From NCBI GenBank assembly GCA_038503035.1, contig JAVSML010020787.1:248001-312000 (forward strand): a stretch of 64,000 nucleotides of DNA, written 5' to 3'. The position numbers and the translations under genes are program-made. The notes beneath the pieces were generated by a model, which had not been told where the DNA came from, did not search any database, and saw only the letters and a program-made list of their open reading frames with translations. Source of the stretch: Crocodylus rhombifer (lineage: Eukaryota; Chordata; Crocodylia; Crocodylidae). Each line of letters opens with the position of its first letter. The first letter of the stretch is position 1. Of this stretch, positions 1 to 345 are shown in pieces.

Positions 1-345
1 AGCTCTTGTAGGCTGGATTACATGGCTCCATGTCTGGGGCCAGGAGGCTGCTGAAGGTTTTGTAGTCTGGGTTACACAGCTCCATGGTTGTTGCCAAGAG
101 GCTGCCAAAGCTCTTGTAGCCTGTGTTACATGGTTCTGTGGTCGTGGCCAGGAGGCTGCTGAAGCTCTTGTAGGCTGGGTTACACAGCTCCATGTCTGGG
201 GCCAGGAGGCTGCTGAAGGTTTTGTAGGCTGGGTTACACGACTCTGTGATCGTGGCCAGGAGGTTGCCAAAGCTCTTGTAGGCTGGGTTACATGGCTCCG
301 TGGCTGTGGCCAGGAGGCTGCTGAAGGTCTTGTAGGCTGGGCCTT
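1..345 (-). repeat. IL4R: In-frame 54-bp tandem array of STAT6/IRS-type docking tyrosines in IL4R
   Basis: Tyrosine codons fall at 332-334, 278-280, 224-226, 170-172, 116-118, 62-64 and 8-10, exactly 54 bp (18 residues) apart. In protein order the units start YKTFSSLLA, YKSFGNLLA, YKTFSSLLA, YKSFSSLLA, YKSFGSLLA, YKTFSSLLA and YKS... Most are preceded by CNPA. Units resemble the human segment GYKAFSSLLAS, a known STAT6 site, so the array probably grew from that ancestral site. It continues past the left edge, so the copy number is a minimum. Confidence 0.96.

What the first reader, a model, noticed from the sequence alone, without database searches (positions are those of the whole stretch)
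1..345. Tandem expansion of docking tyrosines in the IL4R cytoplasmic tail
Seen: seven tyrosine codons at exact 54-bp spacing, each in YK(S/T)F, in the frame of the IL4R last exon, and the array leaves the window. Known: mammalian IL4R has only a few such tyrosines (human sites such as GYKAF and GYKPF recruit STAT6 through its SH2 domain). Inferred: this lineage has multiplied the STAT6-recruiting module, which could raise signal gain, dwell time or make IL-4/IL-13 output graded. I know of no description of such an array.
Basis: partly seen in the sequence, partly recalled or inferred. Interest (0 to 1): 0.88.

Follow-up and report, generated by a model that had tools for sequence, protein, structure and literature searches.

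The report
Tandem signalling-site array in IL-4 receptor
A crocodilian-like interleukin-4 receptor gene carries thirteen near-copies in a row of a short segment that resembles the site where the messenger protein STAT6 docks, and birds and turtles carry shorter versions of the same array, so evolution has varied the number of these sites on one receptor.

Summary
The minus-strand gene is IL4R. Seven YK(S/T) tyrosines lie in the window at exact 54-bp spacing. The genome left of base 1 adds six more (13 units), all YK(S/T)F, and the frame stays open to a stop about 1.5 kb outside the window. Nine coding exons joined by eight GT-AG introns give one 1,170-aa protein.

The array is not private to this lineage: gharial has 17 units, American alligator 16, 8 turtle records 2-4, 84 bird or bird-like records 3-12. 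Units resemble each other most within a lineage, so arrays turn over separately in each. In the own-genome units Y, K and F vary only silently, while the spacer has dN/dS about 0.7-0.8; this fits selection on the docking core, though independent events are few. Birds are looser: 92 of 464 units have Cys at the Phe position.

Two facts temper a pure STAT6 reading. Only 1 of 13 units has the Gly of the published GYKxF motif, and 10 of 13 carry the NPxY core of the IRS-docking motif without its upstream Pro-Leu. Binding and effect on signal strength are untested; STAT6 was not located in this genome. No description of the array appeared in the papers listed by ten searches.

The parts
1..343 (-). 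54-bp tandem array, units 1-6 complete and unit 7 partial (units 7-13 continue outside the window to about window-relative -358)
1..1070 (-). IL4R last coding exon, the part inside the window (continues to the stop codon at window-relative -1502..-1504; 857 codons before the stop in all)
1165..1238 (-). IL4R small cytoplasmic exon (FSVLKTVRSIDEIKAPFPDMKQSH); acceptor attag|TTTTCAG, corrected by comparison with P0001 and bird proteins
1367..1445 (-). IL4R membrane-proximal exon (IKKEWWDQIPNPAKSHLVVKKVKGAQ; box 1, name recalled)
2605..2704 (-). IL4R transmembrane exon
   Evidence: helix 234-269 in the model of P0001
3122..3278 (-). IL4R second ectodomain module, exon with the WSEWS motif
5603..5757 (-). 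IL4R second ectodomain module, first exon (VKPRAP...)
8149..8318 (-). IL4R first ectodomain module, second exon
9045..9186 (-). IL4R first ectodomain module, first exon
13605..13665 (-). IL4R first coding exon (MAKNLNAAVWTLFLSCAAYN), from the ATG

Best explanation
The array is a coding minisatellite in the disordered cytoplasmic tail of IL4R whose 18-residue unit carries a phosphotyrosine docking core, Y-K-x-F-x-x-L-L. Shown: 13 in-frame units in this genome, an intact full-length receptor, homologous arrays of different length in other crocodilians, turtles and birds, lineage-wise likeness of units, and silent-only variation at Y, K and F in the own genome. Inferred: after IL-4 or IL-13 binding, JAK1 phosphorylates the tyrosines and the STAT6 SH2 domain docks on pY-K-x-F, as it does at the mammalian sites; many sites in tandem raise the number of STAT6 molecules held per receptor and the chance of rebinding, so the array sets gain and redundancy and does not create a new pathway. 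Also inferred: unit number changes by duplication and loss of whole 54-bp units, in this genome often three at a time.
For: IL4R identity. Thirteen units, no stop. Units in relatives. YKxF at 13 of 13 own, 15 of 17 gharial and 16 of 16 alligator sites. Own DNA: at columns Y, K, F 0 nonsynonymous against 52 synonymous pairwise differences; as variable nucleotide columns, 2 silent and 0 changing in Y,K,F against 4 silent and 27 changing elsewhere, Fisher P 0.028. Array region of P0001 predicted unstructured (block means of pLDDT 27-37). Four unnamed records (P0023, P0064, P0071, P0075; source 'lgn', bird-like by sequence) from contigs of 3.0-3.6 kb encode ectodomain plus array in one piece of 854-1030 aa, which, given the gene's introns, I take to be spliced transcripts. 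Mammalian STAT6 is recruited by any one of three GYKxF motifs (passage of PMC5962649), at Y575, Y603 and Y631 (figure legend of PMC8442009).
Against: Only 1 of 13 own units has Gly before the Tyr, so the strict published motif is mostly not met. In birds 92 of 464 units have Cys at the Phe position and whole amplified blocks are YKSC (swift 7 of the 9 units, barn owl 7 of the 11), so amplification there does not track a good docking site. In mammals any one site suffices, so extra sites may add little. The pairwise dN/dS comparisons share ancestry; without the last unit the spacer value is 0.70 instead of 0.81; the column test rests on few events, and with the two Leu columns added its strict rule counts 3 silent and 2 changing (P 0.031). 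STAT6 was not located in this genome: STAT6_C gave no match, but no control genome matched either, and a direct STAT6 SH2 search did not complete in seven tries.
Confidence: 0.6

Rival explanations
1. Neutral or nearly neutral coding minisatellite: one or two docking sites are needed, the rest are passengers of slippage and unequal exchange in a disordered, tolerant tail.
For: Unit number differs even among crocodilians (13, 17, 16); 11 of 46 croc and 64 of 399 bird units are identical to another unit of the same protein; birds amplify YKSC units; one site suffices in mammals (passage).
Against: Y, K and F vary only silently in the 13 own units while the spacer has dN/dS 0.7-0.8; Y in 45, K in 46 and F in 45 of 46 units of three crocodilians (whose seeds required Y or H, so this is biased upward). 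Recent homogenisation can mimic part of this.
Confidence: 0.27
2. In crocodilians the units are mainly PTB-domain sites: NPxY docks IRS or Shc proteins, so the array amplifies the PI3K/growth branch, alone or in competition with STAT6.
For: NPxY at 10 of 13 own, 13 of 17 gharial and 6 of 16 alligator sites; in the whole-protein scan none of 8 turtle records and five bird records have an NPxY unit in the array. The core of the I4R motif NPXYXSXSD as given in PMC5962649 (passage) is matched as NPxYxSxS in 5 of 13 own units.
Against: The upstream Pro-Leu of the I4R motif is present at 0 of 13 own, 0 of 17 gharial and 0 of 16 alligator sites, and a hydrophobic residue at -8 at 1 site in each; 10 of 16 alligator sites lack NPxY; Lys and Phe after the Tyr are kept as strictly as the Tyr.
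Confidence: 0.1
3. Assembly or gene-model artefact.
For: Draft assembly of 14,832 contigs; tandem repeats are often mis-assembled.
Against: Same units 1-10 and most of 11 in a protein from a 16.6-Mb contig; arrays in gharial and alligator records and in 90 bird, bird-like and turtle records, four of them from transcript-sized contigs. The exact unit number in this individual remains open.
Confidence: 0.03

Closest known systems
Mammalian IL4R STAT6-docking tyrosines (human Y575, Y603, Y631; GYKxF)
   Same: Same gene by ectodomain and flanking genes; Tyr-Lys-x-Phe core in the cytoplasmic tail, any one of the three sites able to recruit STAT6 in mammals (passages of PMC5962649 and PMC8442009).
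   Different: Three sites in human against 13-17 tandem units in crocodilians; Ala or Asp, rarely Gly, precedes the Tyr; 18-residue spacing. The mammalian tail itself was not retrieved by any search.
I4R motif of IL4R (human Y497, PL-x4-NPXYXSXSD, IRS PTB docking)
   Same: NPxY core in 10 of 13 own units; 5 of 13 read NPxYxSxS.
   Different: Upstream Pro-Leu absent in all 13; Lys and Phe kept at +1 and +3.
Multi-site SH2 docking arrays such as p130Cas YxxP repeats (recalled, from no call)
   Same: Many similar tyrosine motifs in a flexible chain.
   Different: Adaptor protein and Crk partner there; a cytokine receptor tail here.
Bird and turtle IL4R in public protein records
   Same: Homologous array at the same place in the tail, 18-residue period.
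   Different: 2-4 units in turtles, 3-12 in birds; bird units often YKSC; NPxY rare in birds and not seen in the turtle records.

Membership tests
IL4R (interleukin-4 receptor alpha) | Ectodomain homologous to IL4R, Pfam IL4Ra_N over its cut-off | tested here: met
   88.2 bits against cut-off 22.1; best PDB match 1iar_B E 2.8e-26, ahead of other class I receptors
IL4R (interleukin-4 receptor alpha) | WSxWS motif, single transmembrane helix, proline-rich membrane-proximal box (box 1, name recalled) | tested here: met
   WSEWS aligned to 1iar_B; helix 234-269 in the model of P0001; IKKEWWDQIPNPAKS
IL4R (interleukin-4 receptor alpha) | Genes next to it: NSMCE1 and KDM8 (human order recalled) | tested here: met
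   NSMCE1 first exon within 23731-24642 plus by PDB match E 3.2e-10, Pfam SMC_Nse1 below cut-off; KDM8 N-terminal domain within 50084-51013 minus, 48.2 bits against 27, no PDB match
STAT6 docking motif | Tyr-Lys-x-Phe core | tested here: met
   13 of 13 own units
STAT6 docking motif | Gly at -1 (GYKxF as published) | tested here: not met
   1 of 13 own, 1 of 17 gharial, 1 of 16 alligator sites; so the unit is called STAT6-docking-like, not a member
STAT6 docking motif | Binding of phosphorylated site to STAT6 SH2 | not testable with these tools
   needs a binding assay
STAT6 docking motif | STAT6 gene present in the same genome | tested here: inconclusive
   STAT6_C: no match, no control matched; STAT_bind found one gene, STAT5 by PDB match; direct STAT6 SH2 search not answered (seven tries). 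A turtle has STAT6 (passages of PMC12144074)
I4R motif (IRS docking) | NPxY core | tested here: met
   10 of 13 own units
I4R motif (IRS docking) | Pro-Leu at -9,-8 | tested here: not met
   0 of 13 own units; so not filed as I4R

The most novel reading that the evidence does not exclude
Turtles, birds and crocodilians carry a natural dial for receptor output: a tandem docking array with 2 to 17 sites on one receptor, and in crocodilians many units fuse the STAT6-type core with an NPxY core so that one phosphotyrosine can be claimed either by STAT6 or by an IRS/Shc PTB domain, making a long array of two-way switches.
Probability: 0.18. Interest if true: 0.82.

Novelty: new variant of a known kind. 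Interest (0 to 1): 0.62.

Why it matters
How the number of STAT docking sites sets the strength and shape of cytokine output could be asked with engineered receptors. Here one receptor has been varied by evolution from 2 to 17 sites across turtles, birds and crocodilians, with spacing mostly held at 18 residues, which allows a direct test by swapping tails. It also suggests that the IL-4/IL-13 branch of immunity in archosaurs and turtles runs on a receptor tail unlike the mammalian one.

Tried and rejected
Frame openness as evidence: rejected, since other frames of the array are open too. The first protein search, with the tail ORF alone, found nothing among 7,993 candidates; the spliced protein found 94 and an alignment 189, of which 120 were listed. 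All listed hits that bear a species name are birds, turtles or crocodilians; mammals and squamates were not seen, and the 69 unlisted hits are unknown, so presence of the array in squamates is untested. An automatic unit count picked wrong stretches in some turtle and bird records; I use instead. Records without a name (P0023, P0064, P0071, P0075) were put with birds by default. My first acceptor for the exon at 1165 was wrong and was corrected from P0001 and bird proteins. Pfam RBP_receptor on the array is taken as a chance match to repeats. The model P0001 jumps from unit 11 to a later stretch; no GT stands at the inferred donor, so I treat it as a gene-model error, though a true isoform is not excluded. 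STAT6 presence: not settled. Paper searches: (10 of 10 used; open-access library only; the lists were cut at 20 of 25, 15 of 20 and 12 of 19); no listed title or abstract start describes such an array. I saw passages only, of PMC5962649, PMC8442009, PMC4659681, PMC7444064, PMC12144074, PMC8226699 and PMC10511696; the last two and PMC7444064 gave nothing on the array.

Full report
What is there. The minus strand at window 1-343 carries a 54-bp tandem array in which seven tyrosine codons recur every 18 codons, each followed by Lys and Ser or Thr. The reading frame is the last exon of IL4R. Nine coding exons, joined by eight introns with GT donors and AG acceptors, chain into one open frame (one acceptor corrected). 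The spliced protein matches human IL4R in the PDB best of all (E 2.8e-26) and Pfam IL4Ra_N. Neighbouring genes NSMCE1 (its Pfam family stayed below cut-off) and KDM8 (no PDB match) fit the human order, which I recall.

Beyond the window. The window is G000:C5434:248001-312000 of a 2.2-Gb assembly in 14,832 contigs. Left of base 1 the array continues to 13 units, all 12 gaps being 18 codons, followed by two more dispersed YKxF sites (TEKYKQF, EPSYKPF) and a stop codon at window-relative -1502; the receptor ends in NCYMKVA. The whole protein is 1,170 aa. Its tail after residue 270 has 25 tyrosines, 13 of them at the docking position of the units.

Not an artefact of one assembly, and not one lineage. 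A protein search with the spliced receptor returned 94 records. By a loose pattern, 91 of 94 have at least two sites in an 18-residue chain; the other three are two fragments of about 440 aa and a chimeric IL21R model. P0001, which the tool lists without source as the window's own but which differs from it by one residue before the array, lies on a 16.6-Mb contig (the window's contig has 386 kb) and has the same units 1-10 and most of 11. An alignment search added Gavialis gangeticus with 17 units and Alligator mississippiensis with 16, one of its gaps being 15 instead of 18 residues. For an overall count I dropped P0001, P0082, P0083, P0093 and the 22 ectodomain fragments P0099-P0120. The count was seeded on chains that require Tyr or His and extended by spacer likeness without that requirement, so it leans somewhat towards Tyr. 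Those four (P0023, P0064, P0071, P0075) come from contigs of 3.0-3.6 kb that encode receptor and array in one piece, so I infer that the array is transcribed and spliced in frame there. There is no such evidence for crocodilians.

How it evolves. Among 466 units (which also left out P0056 and P0076 as duplicates), the best match in another protein lies in the same group for 46 of 46 crocodilian and 399 of 399 bird units, and for 19 of 21 turtle units (the other two tie with birds). Units are thus alike within lineages. The gharial has six identical units. In the window genome, units three apart differ least on average (8.8 bases, against 10.2-12.8 for the other distances up to six), matching the 162-bp period that Tandem Repeats Finder scores best.

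Is the core kept by selection? In the 13 own units, columns Y, K, F and the two Leu have dN/dS 0.002, and the 11 columns outside Y-K-x-F-LLA 0.81 (0.70 without the last unit); Y, K and F alone have 0 nonsynonymous and 52 synonymous pairwise differences, and 4 of 816 column triples are as low. Pairs are not independent. Counting variable nucleotide columns instead, Y, K, F show 2 silent and 0 changing, the rest 4 silent and 27 changing (Fisher P 0.028); with the two Leu columns the strict rule gives 3 silent and 2 changing against 3 and 25 (P 0.031). The signal is modest. In the crocodilian units Tyr is kept in 45, Lys in 46 and Phe in 45 of 46; in birds Tyr in 404 and Phe in 349 of 464, with Cys at the Phe position in 92. 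Birds therefore seem more relaxed, and swift and barn owl have amplified YKSC units, which speaks against simple selection for more STAT6 sites there.

What it most likely does. In mammals any one of three GYKxF motifs recruits STAT6 (passage of PMC5962649), at Y575, Y603 and Y631 (legend in PMC8442009), and a mimic built on the Tyr631 sequence binds the STAT6 SH2 domain (passage of PMC4659681). The unit has the same Tyr-Lys-x-Phe core in a tail that AlphaFold2 leaves unstructured (block means of pLDDT 27-37 over the array of P0001, from an alignment of 40 of the 120 proteins in hand). The best reading is a multiplied STAT6-type docking module that adds sites, rebinding and redundancy. That last step is inference. 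Two cautions: Gly before the Tyr is found at 1 of 13 sites, and 10 of 13 sites are NPxY, the core of the IRS-docking I4R motif, though its upstream Pro-Leu is missing at all 13. In the scan no turtle record has NPxY and five bird records have one NPxY unit each, so its abundance is a crocodilian trait among the records seen. Whether it docks IRS or Shc is open.

What could not be settled. STAT6 was not located in this genome: the STAT6_C family gave no match, but no control genome matched either; STAT_bind found one gene, a STAT5; the direct search did not complete in seven tries. STAT6 is reported in a turtle (passages of PMC12144074). Squamate and mammalian tails were not retrieved by any search.

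Novelty. The protein sequences of relatives are already public as predicted receptors. In ten searches of the held open-access library no listed title or abstract start describes the array. I rate it a new variant of a known kind: the known IL4R docking tail, in an unusual tandem, copy-number-variable form.

Noticed in passing
P0095, P0096, P0001 (array region): Pfam RBP_receptor (PF14752) matches the array region of crocodilian IL4R over its curated cut-off (51.5, 36 and 34.9 bits against 25) and is precomputed for these proteins in the database searched; probably a repeat-driven mis-annotation.
   Followed up: partly
P0014, P0093 (Apus apus): IL4R is annotated as interleukin-21 receptor isoforms in the swift; P0093 reads like a run-together model of IL4R and further receptor-like stretches.
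   Followed up: no
bird IL4R records, for example P0014, P0097: Amplified units with YKSC instead of YKSF: the docking array may be degenerating or may bind something else there.
   Followed up: partly
window 60033-60290, minus: Open reading frame of 86 codons with protein-like composition (YERNYDNMLFYMKVHDRAICETW...), no Pfam match; not identified.
   Followed up: no
window 24795-25028 minus and 9651-9902 plus: Two stretches read like the C-terminal end of LINE reverse-transcriptase proteins (recalled resemblance, no search made).
   Followed up: no
P0001, residues after unit 11: The database model skips from unit 11 to a distal stretch without a GT at the inferred donor; gene-model error or unusual isoform.
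   Followed up: partly
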